Shown: positions 16,246 through 39,100 of the stretch, in pieces
How positions within the stretch are numbered: the first letter of the stretch is position 1
Layout: each line of letters opens with the position of its first letter
NCBI GenBank assembly: GCA_947179485.1
Contig: OX359246.1
Coordinates: 54,663,632-54,727,631 of the forward strand
Direction: 5' to 3'
DNA from: Allacma fusca
Lineage: Eukaryota; Arthropoda; Collembola; Symphypleona; Sminthuridae
Length of the DNA: 64,000 bases
The notes under the pieces: generated by a model
The model's database searches: none
Seen by the model: the letters and a program-made list of their open reading frames with translations, nothing else
What the model was told of the DNA's origin: nothing
Translations under genes and position numbers: made by a program

Positions 16246-17995
16246 TCAATCGTTTTTAATCGTTCCCTTTTCAGCTTCGTCGTTTGAAATTACTCCCTGT
16301 AACATAGTTTGGGCTGATTCCACGAAAATTGGTTTTAAGATATCTTTATCCTTATTTAGCAAACTCAAACTTTCAGGAATCCTGGAACCCTCACTCTCAA
16401 TATCTTCCAAATGATGATACATACTATCTCCTAATTCACTCTTGTCGATTCCTTGAAGTTCCACTTCCTCAGGAACTCGGACGTGCAAACCTGGGATTTT
16501 ATCAATGACGTACAGGATAATCAGACTCCATACAAAAGACCACAAAACACCGGCTACAGTGTCTATCAACTGAATTCCGACTTGTTTCCAGTTCTCGTCG
16601 AGCCAGCCTCCTTCAATTATTGTCCCGTCCACTGCCGCTACGGATTTCTGGGCAAAGACCCCCGTCAGAATGTTCCCAACGATTCCTCCCATGCCATGGA
16701 CGCAAAATACCTACGACAAATTATTAATGAAGTGTTACAATCACCAATACTAGAAATTGTAGCACTATGAAGGTATACTGTATACACCATATGTAAAGTT
16801 AAAAAAAGTTACATCAAAAGCATCATCCATCGGTAGGAATCTCTTTAGACCCAAACAAAAGTGGCAGGACAGAGCACCCAGAAACCCAAAGGCCAGAGAT
16901 GAGCTTGGTGTAACGTAACCAGACGCAGGGGTTATGGCAACCAAACCACAAATAGCGCCACAGCAGAACCCAAACGCTGATAACTTCTTGTCCTTCCGAT
17001 AGTCCAGAGCTGCCCAGGTAACCCCTCCAACGGATGCCGCCAGGTTTGTCGTTATAAATACAACCACAGCGCGTAGATTTGGCTTGAGTCCTGAGCCAGC
17101 ATTTGCAATTAACCAGCCGAGCCAAATAAAACTTGTTCCAAGAATCACATGAGCCATGCTGTGGGGGGGCTTGTCTTTAGGATTCTGTCGCTTCCCCATC
17201 ACTAAAGCGTAAGCAAGGGCCGCTGTACCTGTGGAGATGTGAACTGGAGTTCCACCACCGTAATCCAAGGCTGAGAAATAGAATGGAAACCGTTATTTTT
17301 AAAAGTTTAGCAGAACAAATGTGGAAAGTGTTGCTACACAAAATCTTACCTCCAAGAAGATACGTCCAACCATTTGGATTCCAGGTCCAATAGGTTAAGA
17401 AGTCAAAGACGACCGTGGACCAGATAAAAATGAAAATCACCGAAGGCAAAAGTCTTGCACGTTCAGCCACGGCGCCGATGATAATGGTTGGTGTTATAGA
17501 TGCGAAAAGGCAATACCAGATCCCGACTAGTAACGCAGGTATTTGTGGGTTTCCGATTGATGAGCCTGAGCCAATATTCCTTAAAAATATATGATCCACA
17601 TTTCCTATGAGGGGTCCTCCCGTATTGCTTAGGCACAGCGTGTACCCTATGATGTACCACTAGTCAAATAGATATACATTTTGAGGTGAAATAGAAGGAC
17701 AAAACTATTTTAGTATTTTTACATTTGAAACATGCTTTTTTCCTTACACACTTTTGTTTACCTGAATAGAAACTAGTGCTACACTCCAAAAACAAGTTAT
17801 GATCAAAATAAGGGAGCTTTTCCTCGGAGCCATGCCATTGTAGAAGAAACCCACGCCGGGAATCATTATCCATGTAATGGCAGTACATGCCAAAATCCAG
17901 GTGACTTCCCCACTGTCAAATTCTGAGATCTTCTGCGTTTCATGCTGATCTAGCTCCTCAGTCTGATTTGAGACAAATTTGGTAATGTCAATCAT
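16246..17995 (-). CDS. Ammonium transporter Amt-1 (4 exons, 488 aa)
   Basis: Amt/MEP-type channel that moves ammonium across the membrane. Exons: 17762-17995, 17350-17659, 16813-17270, 16246-16710; 489 codons with the stop. The family signature PGVGFFYNGMAPRKS follows a short extracellular N-terminus with an N-glycosylation sequon (NQT). The paired pore histidines are His192 in PVHISTG and His339 in VHGMGG. The conserved cytoplasmic tail resembles the regulatory C-terminus of the family (LQGIDKSELGDSMY). The first three exons have exactly the lengths (234, 310, 458) and phases of the matching parts of Amt-2 at 23.8-26.1 kb, so the two arose by duplication. The start at 17995 is supported by alignment to Amt-2. 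Confidence 0.93.
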
Positions 17996-23776: not shown

Positions 23777-26079
23777 CTACATCTGAGAAACTTCTTCACC
23801 ATTCTTGATAACTTCCTGCACATTATTTCTTTCAGTCGATTCGACAAATACTGGGTTATGAACGCCATTCTTCTTCGGAATTTCATTTTCAGTGGATACA
23901 ATATCATCCAGATGCTGATACATGCTCTCGCCCAGCTCTGTCCTGTCGATCCCCTGACGTTCAACTTCAACTGGGACTCGAAGATTTAGCCCAGGGATTT
24001 TGTTGATCACAAACAATATCACAAGTGTCCAAATGAATGACCAGGCTCCGCCTACTAAAGTGTCCAGTAACTGAATTCCAACTTGCTTCCAGTTCCCATC
24101 GACCCAGCCTCCCTCAATATGAGTCCCGTCTACCGCCGGTACTGATTTTTGGGCGAATATGCCGGTTAGAACGTTTCCAACTATTCCTCCGATACCGTGG
24201 ACGCAAAATACCTGGATAAATTAAGCAGTGATTGTCATATCATGCACGTTAATTTATTAATGATCTTAAAGAAAATACGGAGAAGACTACTACTATTGGG
24301 TGTTTTTTTACTAACATCAAAAGCATCATCAATGGGCAGGAACCTCTTGAGACTCAAACAGATGTTACAACAAACAGCACCCAGGAATCCAAACACGAGG
24401 GAAGAGCTTGGTGACACGTAGCCTGACGCAGGGGTTATAGCAACAAGTCCACAAACAGCACCACAGCAGAAGCCAAAAGCCGAAAATTTCTTTTCCTTTC
24501 GGTAGTCCATAGCAGCCCAGGTAACACCACCAATTGAGGCTGCCATGTTAGTTGTGATAAAAACAACCACAGCCCTTAGATTGGGCTTGAGCCCTGACCC
24601 AGCATTAGCAACCAACCATCCGAACCAAATGAAACTTGTTCCAAGGATGACATGTGTCATGTTATGCGGTGGCTTATCTTTAGGATTGTCACGCTTTCCA
24701 AGCACTAATGCATACGCCAGGGCTGCAAATCCTGTGGAGATATGAACTGGCGTTCCACCTCCAAAATCCAGGGCTAAAAATTGAACAATTCAAGAGATGT
24801 CGTTCAAACTCTAATAATTAATTATATATTTGATTACAAAATGATCTGCTGTAATTTTTTTAATATGAAATTACCGCCTAAGAGATACGTCCAGCCATTT
24901 GGATTCCATGTCCAATACGTTAAAAAGTCAAAAACCACAGTTGACCAAATAAAGATAAAAATCACAGATGGTAAAAATCTCGCTCGTTCAGCTACGGCCC
25001 CGATAATAATGGTCGGCGTGATGGCAGCAAAAAGACAATACCAAATCCCGACCAGTAGAGCGGGTACTTCGGGGTTCGAGGCAGCTGGTGATGCACCAAT
25101 GTTCATTAGAAACAAGTGATCCACATTACCTATAAATGGGCCGCCGGTGTTGCTCAAGCAAAGTGTGTAGCCAATGATGTACCACTGCAATATTTCAAAA
25201 ATTGTCATGAAATACGTTTAGTCTTTCCGATGTAAATAATTACTCATTTAAGCAAACAATTCTGGGCTTACTGTACCTGAATAGAAACTAACGCCACGCT
25301 CCAGAGGCAAGTAACGATCAAGACCAGAGAGCTTTTCCTGGGTGCCATGCCATTATAAAAGAAACCTACTCCGGGAATCATGAGCCATGTGATAGCTGTG
25401 CAAGCCAATAACCATGCAACTTCCCCATTGTCAAAATGGGGAATTTCAAGGGGTCCGTTCTCTGCTAACAAGTCCGTCTGATTCGGAAATACTGTAGTTA
25501 TGTCAGTCATTGCATCAGTAACGTTGGGGGAGAATACTTGTTGGAATGATGAGTTTGTTTGGTTGCTCATAACCGGCCAAAACGCTTCAGGGAACAGATA
25601 TGATAGGATATTTCTTTTTGTACTAGTATTAATATCCCCAGAAGAATTAAATGCTTCTGGGAAAAGACTTTGGAGTCCAGCTTCAGGAACTTTATTAACA
25701 TGCGGTGGGATTATTTTCTCTACTGTCCTCGCTGTTGCACCAGTAGAAAAAGCTTCAGGAAATAATCCTTGTAAACCAGCTGTCCGTTCTGTAGTAAATG
25801 CTTCGGGAAAGAGATTCTTCAAACCAACAGTCCGTTCTGTAGTAAACGCTTCGGGAAAGAGATTCTTCAAACCAGCTGTCCTTTCTGTAGTAAATGCTTC
25901 CGGAAAGAGGCTTTGTAAACCAGGGGTACTTTTGGTAGTAAATGCTTCTGGAAATAAGTTCCTGATTCCAGCAGTTGACCTTTCGGTGGTAAAAGCCTCG
26001 GGAAATAGCTTACCGAGGTCCGAGCTCGGCTGTTCTGTCACTTCACTAAATGCTTCTGGGAAGAGTCTTTTAATATCTC
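23777..26079 (-). CDS. Ammonium transporter Amt-2 with LFPEAF-repeat N-terminal region (5' end incomplete)
   Basis: Paralogue of Amt-1. Exons: 25277-26079 (first seen), 24875-25184, 24316-24773, 23777-24211. The transporter core is complete: PGVGFFYNGMAPRKS, PVHISTG, VHGIGG and the regulatory tail. An internal ATG at 25508-25510 (MTDITTVFPNQT) aligns with the Amt-1 start (MIDITKFVSNQT). From it the exon is 234 bp, exactly as in Amt-1, and the protein would be 478 aa. Upstream of that ATG the frame stays open for a further 189 codons back to a splice acceptor at 26080-26081 and encodes nine LFPEAF copies. This acceptor needs an upstream exon that ends with one spare base; I could not find it. 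Amt N-termini are extracellular, so the repeats, if made, face outwards. Either start may be used. Confidence 0.88.
25580..26065 (-). repeat. Nine-copy LFPEAF protein repeat region
   Basis: Nine in-frame copies of LFPEAF. The central copies have a 16-residue (48-bp) unit such as LFPEAFTTERTAGLKN; the outer copies are spaced 17-33 residues apart. The hexapeptide is constant, yet its codons differ: Leu is written CTC, CTA, TTA, CTT or CTG, and Pro is CCA, CCC, CCG or CCT. That is the mark of selection on the protein, not of a recent DNA duplication. The open frame on the opposite strand is a shadow. Confidence 0.85.
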
Positions 26080-28721
26080 CTGTATATAAAAAAAATATGA
26101 TTCAGCTCCATTATTCAACTTAATTCATGTATGGCACAAATTTTAGAGAGAACAATAAAGAATTCAAATAAATTTATTCTTGCCCATTTTAGCACTTTCG
26201 AAACCCAAAATTCACTTTAAAATGCAATGCAGCTGTTATATACAGCTCAAATATGTTTCTATAAATATTTGCTTAGTGTCTGAATTTTTCCGTCTGATAA
26301 GGTACTACTATCTAAAGGATTAATAATCCCCTACTGTAGTCAAAACACCTTCCGTGTTTGGGTTATTTGATCACAGGGTATATCGTCGACACGATAACAA
26401 ATCAATCAAAACCGTTTTATGCCCCTCTTTATGGGAATATCTCGAGAATATGTCATCGCTCAGTATGGAAATTTATCGCAAGATTTTGCCTATTAAAATT
26501 AAACTTCACTCAAGAGATATACTATTAGGACCTTGAAGAAAGTCACATTGGGAAATGAATGAGTACAAATGAATAAAATTTTATGGTCCACTGGGTTCAA
26601 AATCCCATTTCTATCTACAGGACCCTTTGGTATTCGCCGGAGTTTAAATTCTTCGAATGGAAAGTGAGATGAGGAACTCAATATTTGCTACATTTTTAAG
26701 GTCATAACAGCACCAACGTGTACTCAAAACATGTTCCAGTCTTTTTCAATTTTTTCCGGCGTTCCCCAATTTGTCTGTGCCGTTACATATAAATACATTT
26801 TTAGAGGAGTAAGTTAATCTTAAAAAATCCGGAATAGTTTCTAATTTGAATACTTGACAGGAGAGATAAATTAAAAAAGTACACGTGCTTATGAATAGGA
26901 ATAATTAATGAAATAAAAATAAAAATATTTACGGAGTTTCACCTGAATTCACAACGAGGGCTACATTGGGGAACTCTCAAACTTGAGTTGTTTTGTTTTA
27001 CAACCTCGTTCATTGACTGAATTCCAAATGAAATATTGCACGTTACCATCCGCATCAACAATTGGAATTAAGAACTTTTACGTCCTCTACGCTAATGAAA
27101 AAATACTGTGGTTAGTAATGTACTTTCTACATTCACTTGTACTCTTGCAAGTTGGTTCTTCACCGTCAGGATGAAGGTTACTTGAATCAATCCATGACAC
27201 AATTTATCCCTGTATGTATGTATGTATGTATGTATATAGCTTCCCATAATATCCTATTGCCACGAGATGTATTGTAACTATTAGGTTCCTTGTCCATAAC
27301 TTTTTTTTGAGAGAGAGAAGAGTCACTAAAAGGAATTCAGTTACAAAATCATGGGAAAGTTTTAAAAATTGAAGCCCAGTTTAGAATTCCATTGAAGATG
27401 GAGTTTACACATGGGATGGAATCCTTAATGTGTGCTTTATAACGACCAAGTATTTATTACTACTGACGTTTATTTAACTATTCAAGTAATGTATTCAGTT
27501 TTTACCTAATTAAAGTAAATATTTTACGACTGAATTACAGTCGCTATTGTTATGCCTCGAACGTCTCCGTCCTGTATGTTAAATATTTTTGGCAGGGCTG
27601 GTGTAAAAATGCCTCTGTATGTATAATTATACTACCACATGTGCAAGACAGTAGTTAAAGATGACTACTCAGGTTATGGGATGTATCTACCGTGAACTTA
27701 TATCTATGAATAATTATTCCTCACCTGTCAGAATCTTCAGTGTCGAGACAATAACCCACCTGTTCAGGAATTTCCTTGGAAGAAACGAGCTGGTGCTCGT
27801 ACAGGAGGGAGATGTATTATGAATACGGGTTGCCTTTAATTACCCAGGCAATTAAGCAATACGGATAGGGTAAGGCAAAGTCTATGAACTGATTGTAGAG
27901 AAGCAGCAAATTCGTGGCACTTTATATAATGTAAGCATGTCAACAGGTTGAACTTCAAAAATTTGTGTTATTACTACATATACATACATATGATAATAGC
28001 ACAATGCATCTATCTACCTTACAAATGAATACACGTGAATATCCCATGCCAGGAGGTCATAAGGTGTTGTGTGCATGTACATATGAATGAGATTTACTAA
28101 ACACAAGGAAAATCCGTATGCAAGCATTAAATATCTAAACGAGTACGAAATTTTTTCCCGAGAATACAGACCTTGAGTAATGGGATTTTGTGGGAATACT
28201 AATACTTTTGTCTTTGCTATTGAAAAGTATCATTTGATTTCCAGAACCGTCGCGTGAGACTATGTTTTGCATCATGACACGCAATCGTGACACTCGCGAA
28301 AAAAAACTATACATTCGAACAATTACTGAGGTTTTACTTTAACGGAAATGTTACGTGGAAAATATAGTCTGGCCATACATAATTACATGCAAATGAAGAT
28401 TTGCGTTTGCATAAGTTAAATTACAATGTTAGGGAGAGAGTTCTTCATCTGTTTTTAAAGAATGTGCATAAACAACTAAAACTCGCATTTAAGGCTTGCG
28501 ACAGGATGGGAATTTTTCTCCCCTGTGCTAAAATCGAGGTAGTCATAATAGTAATAATTATCATTCCATAAGGAAAATAAAATTTGTCATATTTACAGCA
28601 AAGTTCTAATTCTCTTGTTAATTAAAATATCAGAACTTCATCACCGACACAATTAATTATGTGTATAATTATGCAACACAAGTGAATGAACTGACAGAAC
28701 GATTGCCGAGCCGAATAAATA
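26080..28721. other. Intergenic region, likely containing the missing Amt-2 first exon
   Basis: Upstream of Amt-2, where at least one 5' exon is expected but was not identified. A (TATG)n tract lies at about 27211-27238. Otherwise no gene, RNA or element was recognised. Confidence 0.45.
27211..27238. repeat. (TATG)n microsatellite
   Basis: Six to seven tandem ATGT units. Shorter tracts of the same word occur in many other intergenic places in the window, for example near 15556, 55679 and 56181. Confidence 0.85.
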
Positions 28722-31761: not shown

Positions 31762-33252
31762 CTGATGTGCTAATACGTGTATAAACTATAATTACCTATG
31801 ATTCAAATCAGTAATGCAGATTCCTTTGATTGGAAATACAATTTTCTTGATTTTTTTTCCAGCTTCAAAAACAACTTGGCACTTTGAACTATGGAAGCAA
31901 ATGTAAGATGTGGTTGGCATAGACTAGTATATTTCCTACTGAAGCCGTTAATTTAATAGCTTGATTTGTTGGGAGCTTGGAGTATCTGCGAAAACATCTG
32001 AATTTAATCCGGATCAGTCGTGCCTTAATAAGCTGCAGTTTATAAAATGGATGGCGACTGTTGGTTTGTTAACCCATCGTTTGACCTTCCATTTATTTAT
32101 AATCTGCAACAATATGTACTTTTTGTTTAAACTAATTTCTATTTTTAGAAGCACTTATGCATAACACCAACTGTGATCTGACAACTTTGCAATTTGCATA
32201 GCATTTCTACAAAGGTTACAGTTAAAACAGTGACTTTATTTTGTAGTAATGGATAATTATTTATATACAGTTGACAGTGTAGCTTCGTTGTATCAAGATC
32301 ATACCTGAAAGGAGCAAAATTGGACTTAAATATTAAATTACTACATTAGATATGTATATGCTCTGATAGATAGAAACCCTGCTTCAAAGGAGGTTCTCCT
32401 GTAGTACATATGTATGTATTTTCCATTGGCGAAGCCGATGGCTGTTTAGGCTAGTCAACTATATTAGGCCATTTCTGAAAGCTGTAATTTTTGGGGGTAA
32501 CACAACTGAAAAATTCGTTTAGTATTTTGAACTAGCAAAAAGTCAAATTGCTCCAGAGGGGAAGTTCCTGGGGGGGGGGGGTGTTGAGCTTACCTAAAGG
32601 TGTCCCTAACCTGTCAACTCTATCCAGAAAGATCTTTGCTTAAGTACTTTTACATAAAACACAATCGTAAAAGTAATTGGAAGTCACATGAAGTAGTCCG
32701 CATGTGAGATGCAAAGGACGGATCCATTGGTCCATCATATTATTGGTTTATAATTATTAATCCTTTGAACCATAATCATCAACCATAATCGAACCACAAG
32801 TCAAATATACAAATCCATCAATACTGCACGTCACCAGCATTTAGTTAATGCTCAAGAAGGCTTCTAACCTAATTCAAATTTAGTATATTATTAAAAATCT
32901 TTATTTATTCAGCATTACTTCAGTCCACCCATACTCTGAACGCCTTAACAATGTAGGCTAAAATAATCATAAGATAGATTTTCGTTTAACCTGCAGTGGT
33001 GAGAGAACCCGCTAACTGGTGGGTGATCTAGGCATTATAAGGCCTGCAATTAGGACAAAAATGCTGTCCTAGCCTATGTCAACGAAACTTTGAGAAAGAA
33101 AATGGGTTTGCTTAAAAAAAGGGAACAAATTTTTGCATCTTTGTTTCTTATATAGATAAGACGGAGATAAACATTGTGAGCCACGCAGTATAAATGATTA
33201 TGCTATTGAAAGTTGAAGGTAATATTTATTTATGTACATTTACTTGTTTTGC
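31762..33252. other. Intergenic region, no gene recognised
   Basis: AT-rich, with a run of ten or more G at about 32572-32581 and short chance frames. Nothing else was recognised. Confidence 0.45.
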
Positions 33253-33883
33253 CTAACTCGTGTTGTTGCTATGAACCCATTCACAGAAGTCAGATGATTC
33301 GTCCACAGCTCCCCAGCAATCAATTATTCCGTCACATACTTGAGTTAACAAGATACAATCTCCGAACTTGCAAGGAAATTGGTCATCACTAATTTAAATA
33401 CAAATATTTTTGTGTGTTAATATACTTAAATCGAAAAAATAATAATCCGGAATTCAAGTCATATGTAACGAACTGCACTTACGTGCACTTCATTTTCTTC
33501 CGGTAACATTTTCCCCGCACAGTAAAATTATTCCGTTCATCTTCACCACCTGGATAGCCAATTATAACAGATTGTCTTCGAATGATTTGTATTATATGCA
33601 AAAAATATCGGAATGCATTTATGTACCTGGACAGTCTTTATTCCCATCACAGGCTCTTTGAGCATGGAGACAAATTCCACCTTGATTGCATCGAAACTGT
33701 TGGCACAAGCAAGGGTTCTCAATTGCTTTCCATTCTGCAACTGTAGCACGACATTATTTAATATTAATGACAAACCCACAGTTTAAAATAAAAACTAACT
33801 AAAGGAAATTAATTAAACTAACCAGTATTAGTAACAATCACAACACAAACTATTCCAACAAGAACTGTTTTTAGAAAATACAT
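33253..33883 (-). CDS. Small secreted protein with two LDL-receptor class A domains (4 exons, 123 aa)
   Basis: Exons: 33823-33883, 33627-33734, 33483-33549, 33253-33388; phases close to 124 codons with the stop. Exon 1 encodes a signal peptide (MYFLKTVLVGIVCVVIVTNT). Two LDLa modules follow. The first has the pattern C.C..F.C..G.C......CDG..DC with GGEDE; the second has FPCKFGDCILL then VCDGIIDCW and AVDESSDFC. The acidic calcium-binding cluster (D..DC....DE) is present in both. There is no membrane anchor, so the product is a free secreted binding protein. Its ligand is unknown. The frame was recovered only by splicing; the longest single open frame here is a different, spurious one. Confidence 0.8.
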
Positions 33884-34684
33884 TTTATGTACGGATCCTT
33901 TCAACCCTTAATATAATTCTGCACATGTCTCCCGAAGACTTGCTTTCAAATGTTAGACAGTATGACTGCTCCTTTTGAAGAACGAAATTTCAACAAAGGC
34001 AGCTCTGTAGAGCTTGTAGAGGTAAACAGTGCAACACATACCTTTTCACTTTCATATACATGTAAGCTTTGCGAACTGTATGTAAAATGTACTTGAGGTT
34101 TCATTTCTGAGGGTTGATTGATAGTCATTACGCCAAGATCAAACAAAGAATAAAAGCATGAGGTAAAGGCCGAACAGTTGTTGTCGCTGGGAATTTTATG
34201 TGTCTGAATTTACAATCCTCTTTCACAGTTACATTTACATGAGCTGTACACACCTTTTAATTTGGCAGTCATCACTAAAAGGAGCAAAGTAATCGCACCT
34301 ACGTACATATATGACCCTAAGCAAGCGTGTAAAAAGAATTGTGTAAATTGGATGTAGAAAATCCATAAGTAACATAAGCATAATTAATGCAACTTAAGCT
34401 CTCTCTTTTCTAAAAATTACATACATTGGTGTGAGAAAAACTCACATGGGAACACATTCACTGCCTCACAGAAAGAGGCTTGTCACAGTGTGTAATCAAT
34501 GCAGGATAATGCTGTAGTCAGTCGACCAATGTCAATTTATTTTTGCACGTTTTTAAAAAAAAATGTACATGTGTCTACACCCCTATATTAACTTTTAAAA
34601 ATCAGTTATGTTTAGCTTTCAACAAAACATTAATAATTTATAAAAAATGAGCATTCTGGCATTGAATGTTGAGCAACGCCAAAT
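33884..34684. other. Intergenic region, no gene recognised
   Basis: Between the LDLa gene and the receptor kinase. AT-rich, no structure seen. Confidence 0.4.
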
Positions 34685-37600
34685 TCATATTTCGTAAAGA
34701 TCTTCTAATTCACTTGAGTAATCACTCACAGATTTCCAGAGATATTGAAAAGTTGGCCTGCCTTTTGGGTCGATATTCCAGCAGTCCAACATAAATTTGT
34801 ATCTGTTTTTGAAGGTTAAAATTATCATTACATTTCCGCGACTCACTGTATGTAATGTTACATTCAAAATCACCAAATATACTTCGAAAATTGGAAACAA
34901 AAGCGGTAAACGTACAATTTCTGTGATGCGTATGGAGGCATGTCATTTCTCTTCCCATTCTGAATTTCTTTCCAAGATCCGAATCCCCACTCCATGCCTG
35001 GATAAGGTGTCTCGCCAAGAGAGAAAATCTCCCACATTACTACCCCATAGCTCCAGACATCAGACTGAATTGAAAATTTCAGATCTTTCAGGGACTCATA
35101 TGCCATCCAACGAAGGGGCAAAGGAACCTATAAAAAAAATCAGTAAACTGAAGTACTGTTGTTAGAATTAAAATAATATTTATCTTTCTCACCCATATTT
35201 AGGAGCGCATTGAAACGAAGTGTTACAATTAAGTACTAGATATGTGTAATTAAATAGAACTGTAAGGTTTCTTACATTGACTTTCTGGACGTAGGTTGTG
35301 TATTCATACAACTGCTTGGATAGTCCAAAATCACTGACTTTAGCATGTAAGCATTTTGTTATTAGAATATTTCTCCCAGCTAAGTCCCCATGGATTACCT
35401 GTTGAAACAATTAGAGCTCTTGTTTCGACAGTATTTTCTTATTTCTACTAACAACTGCATTTCTAAGTTCCACTTACGTTTTTAGCACTTAGGAAATCCA
35501 TTCCCAGAGCTATCTCATAAGCCCAACGAATTAAATCGAATGTAGTTAATCTCTTCACTGGATGGTTTTGATACACAATGCTGCATCAAAGTCAAAACGA
35601 ATTAGCAGGGAACGTCCATAAAATCCAACCGGTAATCCAGTTATAGTAATGACTCTAATAATTATTAATACCTATTTTTCTCCATGTCAGCATATTCTAT
35701 TTCAAAGTAGTTCTGAAATATTCCTCGATTTTTCTGGAGAACCGACACCATATTTCCAAGCTCGCAATATTCCAGTATAATGAATATTTCCTCTGTTATT
35801 AAATTTCGGTAATGACTTTATGCTCAGAATGTAAAAACCATGACTTTTAAGATTTTAGTGGGATCGGTGAGTTCCTTACTTTTTCTAATATTTTGAGTAC
35901 TCGCTCCTAGAAGATTAACCACATTGGAGTGACGACCGACGAAAGACATAATTTTTAGTTCGGAAAGTAATGCCTTCAAGTACCCCACATCCGCAGTCTT
36001 TTTCAATGTTTTGATGGCTACCACACTTGTTCCGTAGAGACCTTTGACCACTTTCCCGTACGCACCAATTCCCAGGATCTCCTCGCCTGATTATCATAAT
36101 CATGACATTAATGCTTAAAAAAGGAATCACTAAGTGAGTTCTAGAGGCTACGGGGCAGTTCAAATAGATTAATTACTTGCGGTGAAGTTTTCCAGTGGCA
36201 CTTCCAATTCCATATTGTACGGCACTAGAAATGCATCCGTTGCGTCTGGGTTACCAAGTTGGAACTCTTGTATTTCATCTTCCGTCAAATTCATTGATTT
36301 CTTCTGCTTGCGAATTTTCCAACAAGCAGTTGCTACTACAGTAATTAAGAGAAATGCAGCTAAGGAGCAGACGATGATGACAATGTGAGTGTGCATTGTC
36401 TTCATAGTAGTTTCCGTATCTGAACCTTAAAGTCATAACAATAAAGAGTTGGGAATTCTGTTAGATCAAATAAATACATATGTAGGTATGGCAAGGCGAC
36501 AATTCGGTGAGTACCTTTTGAAAGTAAAAAATGAACCTCAAGGCTTCCTGCCCCATTTCTCAAAACGCAAACAATTTCATTGAAAGGATGTTCTGGACTT
36601 AGATAAACTTCACTTTTATTAACATCGTCAGTTTGGTTGTAATGGATCGAGGTTGATTTCCGTTTATCCCAATCTACCGATTTCTGAGTATAAAATAATA
36701 AATTATTATTACTAAGATTTTGTGTTTGTTTGGGGAAAGCTGGAGCAGTTTCAGACGTAATAGGTTGAGCAGCTAATCAAAACTGTTCATATCGCTATAC
36801 TTTTGACACCTAGAAGTTTAAACCTGCGCCCCTCTTGGTTAGATTAGATATTTCGAGACAAAATGTAGCATAAGCTTATTTATGGTTCTCAAAGAATAGT
36901 AATTATTATTAATCCTGAAATACATCAAATATGAAGTCTCTTGCTACCAAAAGTAATTATTTACAAGGATATAACATTATAATGTGTATTGTAACAAATA
37001 GTATAGTTTTAAAATAGCGTACCACTCCATCGAATCTCCACGAGATTTGTGCAGGTGGTTCACCAGTCCGATTGCAGGTCAGTTTTTCTTCCTTATTTGA
37101 TATATTTAATTTAACGATTTCCATGTCATTAGGGTTGGAGCAATTCTGTGTCGTTAGGCAGGGCTTTATTGATCCTGCAAAATAAATGTGGGCTGAATTA
37201 ATCTTTCCCCTTGATTACTTACTAATCCCGAATATTGTTTCTATTGGACACTATACATTTACCTATCATCATGTCTTCCAACTATTTCAGTGCTACTCAT
37301 AGTCATAGTAGTCAATGAGGATGGACACGTACCTGTGACATTCACGGGGTAATGAAATTCAGTCATTTGCACGGAGTTCCAATTGGGAGCAACGCAAACA
37401 ACTTCTTTGATGGATGGATCATTGAATCGAATTCTATTTATGGACGTATGCGTTTGAGTTATCTCATTGGTTGACTCCCTACCTGGTGCTGTAACGTTTG
37501 TTATAACAAAATCTTGGATTGTATTGACTTAAAATAAAATCACATTAAATTGATGTAGTGAAAGGTGACATTTATGAACCTAGGTTAATTTCAGATTTAT

Positions 37601-39100
37601 TTTCGTATATAAGTTTCCACTGGATTCCAAAGGAAAAAAAGGACTTGAGAGCGGAACAAGTAAACTCCCTGTGGTATCCGGTGTAGATAGCTGTTTTATT
37701 CTCAACGTACTTGCAACCACATGTTTCGTCCACGGAGGTATTCATTCGTACACTCAACAAACCCATTCCTGGCTCCATTTCTCGGTTGTATTCATCTGTA
37801 TACGTAGTACGAGAATGCAAAGACCATAATTTACTATAAAACTATAATATTATTTAATATAAAGACAAAGCACATACACATTCGGCTGGTCTCATTGCCA
37901 AGAGGTTTGAAGAAACCCCTTGCGACACTATTATTATTATTTTCCCCACATGCTAGTATGAATAGCTTAGAAGTGTCAAGGAGTTTTGCACACAGGTCGC
38001 TAGTGCAATTTTGATGGAACGTGATAGTTGTGTTGCATTCCATCTTTCTCTGTCAAATTAATTCATTAATTACATATAATTAATTACATTGTACCGTCCA
38101 ATGTTAATAATGTTAGCAAATAGCTAATGCAAGGGAATTTGTATTAATGTTCCTAATTACATTTTTAATGACCGTTGCACATTCATCCGGGTCACCGCAA
38201 GGAACGAAAATAGATGGCACTTGTTTTTCAGTATTGTTAGCTTCCGTGCATGCATATTTACCGTTTTCCAAATCCACGTGGAGGGCAAATCTACATTGGT
38301 CATTCCAACCGAGCCTGTGATCTACTCTGTTCGCCTTCTCTTGTTGTCGAATAGTTTTGTTAGCTATTGGAGAAAAAAAGTTGAGATTGTAAAAAAGTAA
38401 TAGAAATTTGATCTCTGAAGCTTACAGGAAGAAAAATGTGTCCTTACACTCTCCATACTCTAGAATAAAATAGGCTGGGTATTTTGGAGTAGTTTTGTAT
38501 TTTACGAAAGTATTTAGATTCCGGCAAGTTTTATTTTTTGGGCAAACATTTTCACAGGATAAGTCTACCAGTTGGTTTGGATTGGAATATTTCACCTTGA
38601 AAGTGGAAATAAAGCAGGGTAGTTCAGTAGAGGTGGTGTGATTGTGCCACTTGTTGATTTCAATTTTTTTCACGGATGGATCTCTCAGCTTTTAATAAAA
38701 ATTATTCACATGAGATAAAAATATCTTGAATAATTTCTCTTTTATAGTAAATCTTATATGTTTGTTATATTCATAAGATTTTGAATAAATATATATAGAA
38801 GTATAATAATGAATTACTTAATTCAAAATATCACAAATAAAATTTCTAATAATTTTGTAGAACCTGTTCAGCGAAGAAATTCCACTTCGTCGGTAAGGTA
38901 GAACGACATTCGAAAATCAACTCGTTAAAGACTCTTGGAAGGAATATAGAAGAACTATTGACCGTTATATTTTGATACTCAGCAAAAGTTTTGTATGATT
39001 TGAGAGTTAAGTTAGGTGCACTTTCATCAACGTTAGGATCCCGTGTTATCACACTTGGGATGAAATAAGTAACGGCAATCACTATGAAAAGATATACCAT
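34685..39100 (-). CDS. Receptor tyrosine kinase with Ig-like ectodomain (15 exons, 919 aa)
   Basis: Exons: 38864-39100, 38448-38688, 38161-38363, 37874-38049, 37580-37833, 37333-37527, 37023-37174, 36515-36683, 36177-36425, 35880-36086, 35672-35792, 35478-35580, 35276-35398, 34916-35127, 34685-34802; 920 codons with the stop. Signal peptide from [13 protein letters not shown]. The ectodomain is Cys-rich with many N-glycosylation sequons and at least one clear Ig fold ([24 protein letters not shown]). TM about 557-577. Kinase: P-loop GIGAYGKV, Lys651 in VAIKTLK, Glu668, DFG at 792. The layout, with a short kinase insert, is nearest the PDGFR/VEGFR/FGFR classes. The catalytic loop reads HGDLAGRN (Gly773 for the Arg of HRD) and the APE motif reads AYE (Tyr820). 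Asp774, Asn779 and DFG remain, so activity is possible but as a non-RD kinase. The exon 4/5 junction was chosen by phase (donor at 37873). Confidence 0.9.

What the first reader, a model, noticed from the sequence alone, without database searches (positions are those of the whole stretch)
25580..26079. An ammonium transporter with a nine-copy LFPEAF repeat fused ahead of its ancestral start
The paralogue Amt-1 starts at a methionine that aligns with an internal methionine of Amt-2 (25508-25510); measured from there the two first exons are both 234 bp. Amt-2 alone stays open for 189 more codons upstream and encodes LFPEAF nine times. The hexapeptide is fixed while its codons vary at nearly every synonymous site, which indicates selection on the peptide. 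Amt N-termini face outside the cell, so the repeats would form an extracellular display, or a multi-copy peptide region attached to a channel. I know of no Amt family member with such a region.
Basis: partly seen in the sequence, partly recalled or inferred. Interest (0 to 1): 0.78.

Follow-up and report, generated by a model that had tools for sequence, protein, structure and literature searches.

The report
Springtail ammonium transporter with repeat tail
A springtail carries an ammonium transporter whose outer end has grown a long tail holding the same six-amino-acid word nine times, and the DNA pattern says the word has been kept by selection although its task is unknown.

Summary
The window lies on chromosome 2 of the springtail Allacma fusca. 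Amt-2 (minus strand) encodes LFPEAF nine times, in frame ahead of an intact Mep/Amt transporter. The missing start can be placed: ATGG at 26187-26184, a 104-bp GC-AG intron, then the repeat exon. This model equals, letter for letter, a 669-aa Allacma protein already deposited without a name. The nine hexapeptides differ only at synonymous sites, while linkers change freely, so the peptide appears to be under purifying selection. The tandem sister Amt-1 (77% identical) lacks the tail. The other 119 proteins among the 120 best core matches listed (of 2258) have 525 residues or fewer. No second array was found in the genome or in the capped protein searches. Six N-glycosylation sequons and a Mep2-like fold put the tail outside the cell; folding predicts it mostly disordered. 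Best reading: a tail gained around the Amt-1/Amt-2 duplication that shows nine identical modules as a multivalent outer binding or anchoring array. The function is inferred, and there is no transcript or protein evidence. The transporter itself groups inside fungi, next to Mortierellaceae, which hints at horizontal transfer.

The parts
26236..26242 (-). TATATAA box, its first base 55 bases upstream of the proposed start codon (putative core promoter)
   Evidence: position and sequence only, not tested for function
26184..26187 (-). proposed coding part of exon 1, ATGG, in the context AAAATGG
   Evidence: the only one of the five ATGN|G[TC] sites within 3.9 kb upstream that gives the deposited N-terminus MG; full model equals P0001
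26080..26183 (-). GC-AG intron of 104 bp (GCAAGA...TATACAG); other introns of the gene are 92, 101 and 104 bp
25277..26079 (-). repeat exon: N-tail with nine LFPEAF, then Met190, TM1 and part of TM2
25580..26065 (-). array of nine LFPEAF copies, spacing 19, 17, 16, 16, 16, 16, 33, 23 residues
25508..25510 (-). internal Met190 that aligns with the start of Amt-1
24875..25184 (-). Amt-2 transporter exon
24316..24773 (-). Amt-2 transporter exon
23777..24211 (-). Amt-2 last exon with stop codon
16246..17995 (-). paralogue Amt-1 (exons 17995-17762, 17659-17350, 17270-16813, 16710-16246), no repeats; equals deposited P0002

Best explanation
Amt-2 is a Mep/Amt ammonium transporter of the springtail Allacma fusca with an intact transporter domain. 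After the tandem duplication that made Amt-1 and Amt-2, or close to it in time, its N-terminus was extended into upstream sequence. Its tail is now about 220 residues long, outside the cell, flexible and probably N-glycosylated, and carries nine copies of LFPEAF. SHOWN: one open frame, an exact match to a deposited protein model, a pattern of change that fits purifying selection on the hexapeptide but not on the linkers, and an intact transporter domain. INFERRED from family knowledge: the tail is outside, carried across the membrane by TM1 without a signal peptide. INFERRED, weaker: the copies act together as a multivalent array of short hydrophobic modules that binds an extracellular partner or anchors or clusters the trimer (27 copies per trimer) at the cell surface, for example to matrix or mucus of the gut or the excretory surface.
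Against: No transcript or protein evidence was available. The first intron is of the rare GC-AG kind and its first exon holds four coding bases. A 220-residue tail without a signal peptide is long for transfer across the membrane by TM1 (recalled). The amphipathic-helix idea failed: the helical hydrophobic moment reached the 5% level of shuffles in only 2 of 9 units. A Mep2 mutant lacking its N-terminal residues 2-27 grows like wild type (PMC4852598), so N-tails in this family may do little for transport. No species with a second example was found, so conservation between species is untested. No binding partner is known. About four silent sites per unit make the pS figures rough.
Confidence: 0.5

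Rival explanations
1. The tail is translated and outside, but is a passive spacer: a disordered tail lengthened by tandem duplication, with no partner.
For: Central 48-bp tandem copies; low folding confidence; paralogue and relatives live without it.
Against: Six residues fixed in nine copies while linkers changed freely at about equal silent divergence; a spacer would not fix one word, also outside the 16-residue periodic part (copies 1, 8, 9).
Confidence: 0.2
2. The repeat region is 5' untranslated sequence and translation starts at Met190 or at Met172.
For: Amt-1 starts at the Met that matches Met190; the internal ATG has a G at -3; no transcript data here.
Against: 189 open codons; all of the 11 or more changes in the hexapeptides are synonymous; a deposited model includes the tail; the upstream ATG has a better context (A at -3, G at +4).
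Confidence: 0.1
3. The tail is cytosolic and LFPEAF is a multi-copy sorting or adaptor-binding word (it contains F-x-E-x-F, near the FxDxF kind of endocytic motif, recalled).
For: Many short aromatic words in disordered sequence look like adaptor tails (recalled).
Against: Mep2 N-termini are outside (PMC4852598 passages); charge bias at TM1 and six sequons agree.
Confidence: 0.07
4. The tail is a multi-copy peptide precursor that releases LFPEAF peptides.
For: Repeated peptide with variable spacers, as in neuropeptide precursors (recalled).
Against: Dibasic sites only at residues 5 and 156 of the tail, none between copies 1 and 8; no hydrophobic signal-like stretch in the model's tail; tied to a polytopic channel.
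Confidence: 0.04
5. The true first exon lies further upstream and encodes a signal peptide, for example 34308-34254 (MYVGAITLLLLVMTAKLK, phase 1), so the tail is secreted by a signal peptide.
For: Frame and donor fit; would ease export of a long tail.
Against: Needs an 8.2-kb intron over about three other gene-like stretches (by eye); the deposited N-terminus MG fits the near exon.
Confidence: 0.06

Closest known systems
Fungal Mep2-type ammonium transporters (Candida and yeast Mep2, PDB 5aez, 5fuf, 5aex)
   Different: Mep2 N-termini are about 20-25 residues longer than bacterial ones; Amt-2 has 222 residues before the domain, with nine repeats
Allacma fusca Amt-1 (P0002) and the Folsomia, Orchesella and Bradysia Amts (P0006-P0010, P0012, P0021, P0077)
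   Same: Same group in the tree (99/98); Amt-1 is the tandem sister, 77% identical, with the same lengths of shared internal exons
   Different: No repeats and short N-tails; longest 55 residues before the domain
Sensor-fused Amt proteins (Sd-Amt1, PDB 8qj3, 8qj4; sensor Amt 6eu6)
   Same: Show that Amt cores can carry added domains
   Different: In the Sd-Amt1 chains (644 aa) the match to Amt ends near residue 418, so the extra part is C-terminal; bacterial

Membership tests
Mep/Amt ammonium transporter family (PF00909) | Full-length match to the domain profile above the curated cut-off | tested here: met
   349.7 bits against a cut-off of 23.2, profile positions 1-399 of 399
Mep/Amt ammonium transporter family (PF00909) | Mep/Amt fold (eleven TM helices) | tested here: met
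Mep/Amt ammonium transporter family (PF00909) | Twin-histidine pore residues | tested here: met
   H383 and H530: both invariant in 13 rows; H530 invariant and H383 at least 90% in 43 rows. That these are the twin His is by recall of the AmtB motif
Mep/Amt ammonium transporter family (PF00909) | Moves ammonium across the membrane | not testable with these tools
   needs a transport assay
Multi-copy peptide precursors | Cleavage sites between peptide copies | tested here: not met
   no dibasic site between copies 1 and 8; one between copies 8 and 9
Multi-copy peptide precursors | Signal peptide | tested here: inconclusive
   none in the deposited model (maximum 19-residue hydropathy 0.41 in the tail); a remote candidate exon exists

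The most novel reading that the evidence does not exclude
A fungal-type ammonium permease, taken up by springtails from a Mortierella-like fungus, was duplicated, and one copy grew, from sequence of unknown origin, a selected, nine-valent extracellular peptide array on a trimeric channel: a new type of outer domain for the Mep/Amt/Rh family, with a function other than transport such as anchoring, clustering or receptor-like binding.
Probability: 0.25. Interest if true: 0.75.

Novelty: new variant of a known kind. Interest (0 to 1): 0.52.

Why it matters
Mep/Amt/Rh proteins are well studied channels, and the N-termini of the relatives aligned here are short. A selected multivalent outer tail on one of two tandem sisters gives a clean natural comparison (Amt-1 without, Amt-2 with) for how a channel gains an extra role. 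The peptide looks selected with no known partner, which makes it a direct target for a pull-down. If the fungal origin holds, it is also a case of a foreign gene being elaborated in an animal.

Tried and rejected
Amphipathic-helix repeat: folding shows short kinked helices at most copies, but hydrophobic moments beat shuffles at the 5% level in only 2 of 9 units, so I do not claim it. Docking of copies 8 and 9 on the channel: not indicated, as their confidence is similar without the channel (the two jobs differ in alignment, 43 rows against 1).

Related array elsewhere: the C9 match L005 is a different repeat (NFSEAFSK, open on both strands). Remnants of the repeats in the rest of the window, including upstream of Amt-1, or at L003/L004: none; outside the array itself the best tblastn hits have E 2.6. 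The DNA of the two 5' regions matches well only over the shared exon (159 bp, 80%), so the origin of the repeat DNA is unknown.

Plus-strand ORF 25482-26123 over the same DNA: its repeated word NASG(K) shares third codon positions with LFPEAF, so silent change on one strand is mostly silent on the other. Its pN is 0.133, but that count holds a chance match among its 10 units, which leans the comparison against it. The fusion to the transporter and the deposited protein decide for the minus strand; I treat the plus-strand frame as a shadow.

Protein searches were limited: candidates of 0.55-1.75 times the length, and only the roughly 8000 sharing most words were scored, so a short stand-alone LFPEAF protein could be missed. 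The springtails with hits were Allacma, Folsomia candida, Orchesella cincta and O. dallaii; no second sminthurid was seen. Literature: full-text searches for LFPEAF (0 papers), ammonium transporter with N-terminal extension and repeat, with springtail and horizontal gene transfer, with Collembola, with arthropod and horizontal gene transfer (of which 10 listed), with extracellular N-terminal domain: by title and start of abstract, none of those listed is about this protein. Papers: PMC10427803, PMC4852598 and PMC13389597 seen as passages; PMC9630974 and PMC3663718 searched for terms that did not occur; all others only as listings.

Tree limits: one search used 33 of the 123 proteins held plus L003 and L004; one search used 28 of 123 plus L003, L004 and L028. 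Left out after one search were the long-branch rows P0077, P0093 and P0104, and four unnamed metagenome rows P0003, P0023, P0049 and P0073; P0084 and P0096 were added. L003, L004 and L028 are rough exon joins or pieces.

Full report
WHAT AND WHERE. The window is G000:C8:54663632-54727631 of an assembly of 392,743,791 bases in 91 contigs. Contig lengths of 81.89, 75.61, 66.08, 55.59 and 48.06 Mb agree within about 0.01 Mb with chromosomes 1, 2, 3, X1 and X2 of the published Allacma fusca assembly (81.9, 75.61, 66.08, 55.59, 48.07; 392.8 Mb in 95 scaffolds; PMC10427803, passages). So C8 is chromosome 2. Two deposited Allacma proteins equal the two Amt genes exactly.

THE GENE. Amt-2 runs on the minus strand from 26187 to 23777. 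The repeat exon 26079-25277 is entered in phase 1 through the acceptor AG at 26081-26080, and its frame has no Met ahead of the repeats (Met172 and Met190 follow them). Of five ATGN|G[TC] sites in the 3.9 kb upstream, one gives M-G: ATGG at 26187-26184 followed by GCAAGA, an intron of 104 bp. The full model gives 669 residues identical to P0001. A remote ATGG|GTGAGA at 35196 would also give MG but needs a 9.1-kb intron across other gene-like stretches. The start context is AAAATGG, with TATATAA at 26242-26236. How the deposited model was built (with or without RNA reads) I could not learn: the terms annotation, braker, RNA-seq, gene models, augustus and CAJVCH do not occur in PMC9630974.

THE REPEATS. 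Nine copies; spacing 19, 17, 16, 16, 16, 16, 33, 23 residues. The central unit reads about GLxxLFPEAFTTERTA. In the hexapeptide only silent sites vary. Over 36 pairs pS is 0.764 and pN 0.020 (the latter an effect of paths between CTN and TTR Leu codons); eight flanking residues give pS 0.735 and pN 0.488. This contrast at about equal silent divergence is the main evidence for selection. Silent divergence among copies resembles that between the cores of Amt-1 and Amt-2 (pS 0.68), so the array does not look young, though each unit has few silent sites. The genome search found no second array: 30 exact pattern hits, 9 here, 21 isolated, 11 for the reversed control; the only other weak match of the repeats was the unrelated L005. 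Among the 7997 candidates scored with residues 1-190, P0001 alone came back even at E 10.

RELATIVES. Amt-1 is the tandem sister (100/100 in two trees). It and 41 other relatives aligned have 55 or fewer residues before the domain, median 18.5 (P0010 among them is incomplete at its N-terminus). Of the 120 best core matches listed (2258 passed the threshold), the other 119 have 525 residues or fewer. The two further Amts of this kind in the genome show no repeats in the open frame ahead of the domain (L003, L004; their starts were not modelled). One gain on the Amt-2 side is the simplest history, but loss from Amt-1 is not excluded, given the divergence of the copies.

TOPOLOGY AND STRUCTURE. 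Sequons at 146, 152, 174, 177, 187 and 201 precede TM1 at about 222; Amt-1 keeps the one that matches 201. The charge bias favours an outside N-terminus. The Mep2 structure paper describes the N-terminus as part of the extracellular domain, replaced Asn4 to prevent glycosylation, and reports that a mutant lacking residues 2-27 grows like wild type (PMC4852598, passages), so N-tails of this family need not matter for transport. AlphaFold models give the core at high confidence and the tail mostly under pLDDT 50. Residues 132-167 form a modest local helical pair in both models.

MECHANISM. I take the tail as a flexible, glycosylated, multivalent display; three tails per trimer would hold 27 copies (trimer from family knowledge). 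What it binds is unknown. Anchoring or clustering at the surface is my first choice, a passive spacer second.

FUNGAL AFFINITY. The springtail and Bradysia Amts form one group (100/99) inside fungi, next to Mortierella, Dissophora and Haplosporangium (98/97). Holding the fungi together is rejected only narrowly (p-AU 0.043), and the group was chosen after one search had shown the pattern. A more animal-like Amt in the same genome (L028, 27-32% identical to its best matches among the proteins held) falls far outside on a very long branch. Apart from springtails and Bradysia, no animal Amt is in the tree. [quoted passage not shown] the word ammonium does not occur in its main text. This is a lead, not a result.

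VERDICT. A real oddity: a new architectural variant within a known transporter family, deposited but, in my searches, not discussed. Function unproven.

Noticed in passing
16246-17995 and 23777-26187; L003; L004: Four Allacma Amts of fungal type group with Folsomia, Orchesella and Bradysia Amts inside fungi next to Mortierellaceae (98/97, p-AU 0.043), suggesting horizontal transfer.
   Followed up: partly
L028 (G000:C8:47950407-47951321), L031-L033, L037: The genome also holds more distant, perhaps animal-type, PF00909 genes, 24-44% identical over the pieces aligned to the fungal-type set.
   Followed up: partly
25482-26123 (+): A 213-aa open frame on the other strand of the repeat exon, with a NASGK word; its silent sites coincide with those of LFPEAF, so it is probably a shadow.
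   Followed up: yes
34254-34308 (-): Signal-peptide-like mini-exon MYVGAITLLLLVMTAKLK with a good donor, in the correct phase for the Amt-2 repeat exon, owner unknown.
   Followed up: no
about 33250-33883 (-): Small secreted protein with a signal-peptide-like start and cysteine-rich modules that look like LDL-receptor class A repeats (by eye).
   Followed up: no
about 34690-39100 (-): Exons that look like a receptor tyrosine kinase with a cysteine-containing outer part (by eye).
   Followed up: no
L005 1528-1932: Tandem repeat reading NFSEAFSK on one strand and FLEKASEK on the other, on the contig that matches chromosome X2; unrelated to LFPEAF.
   Followed up: no
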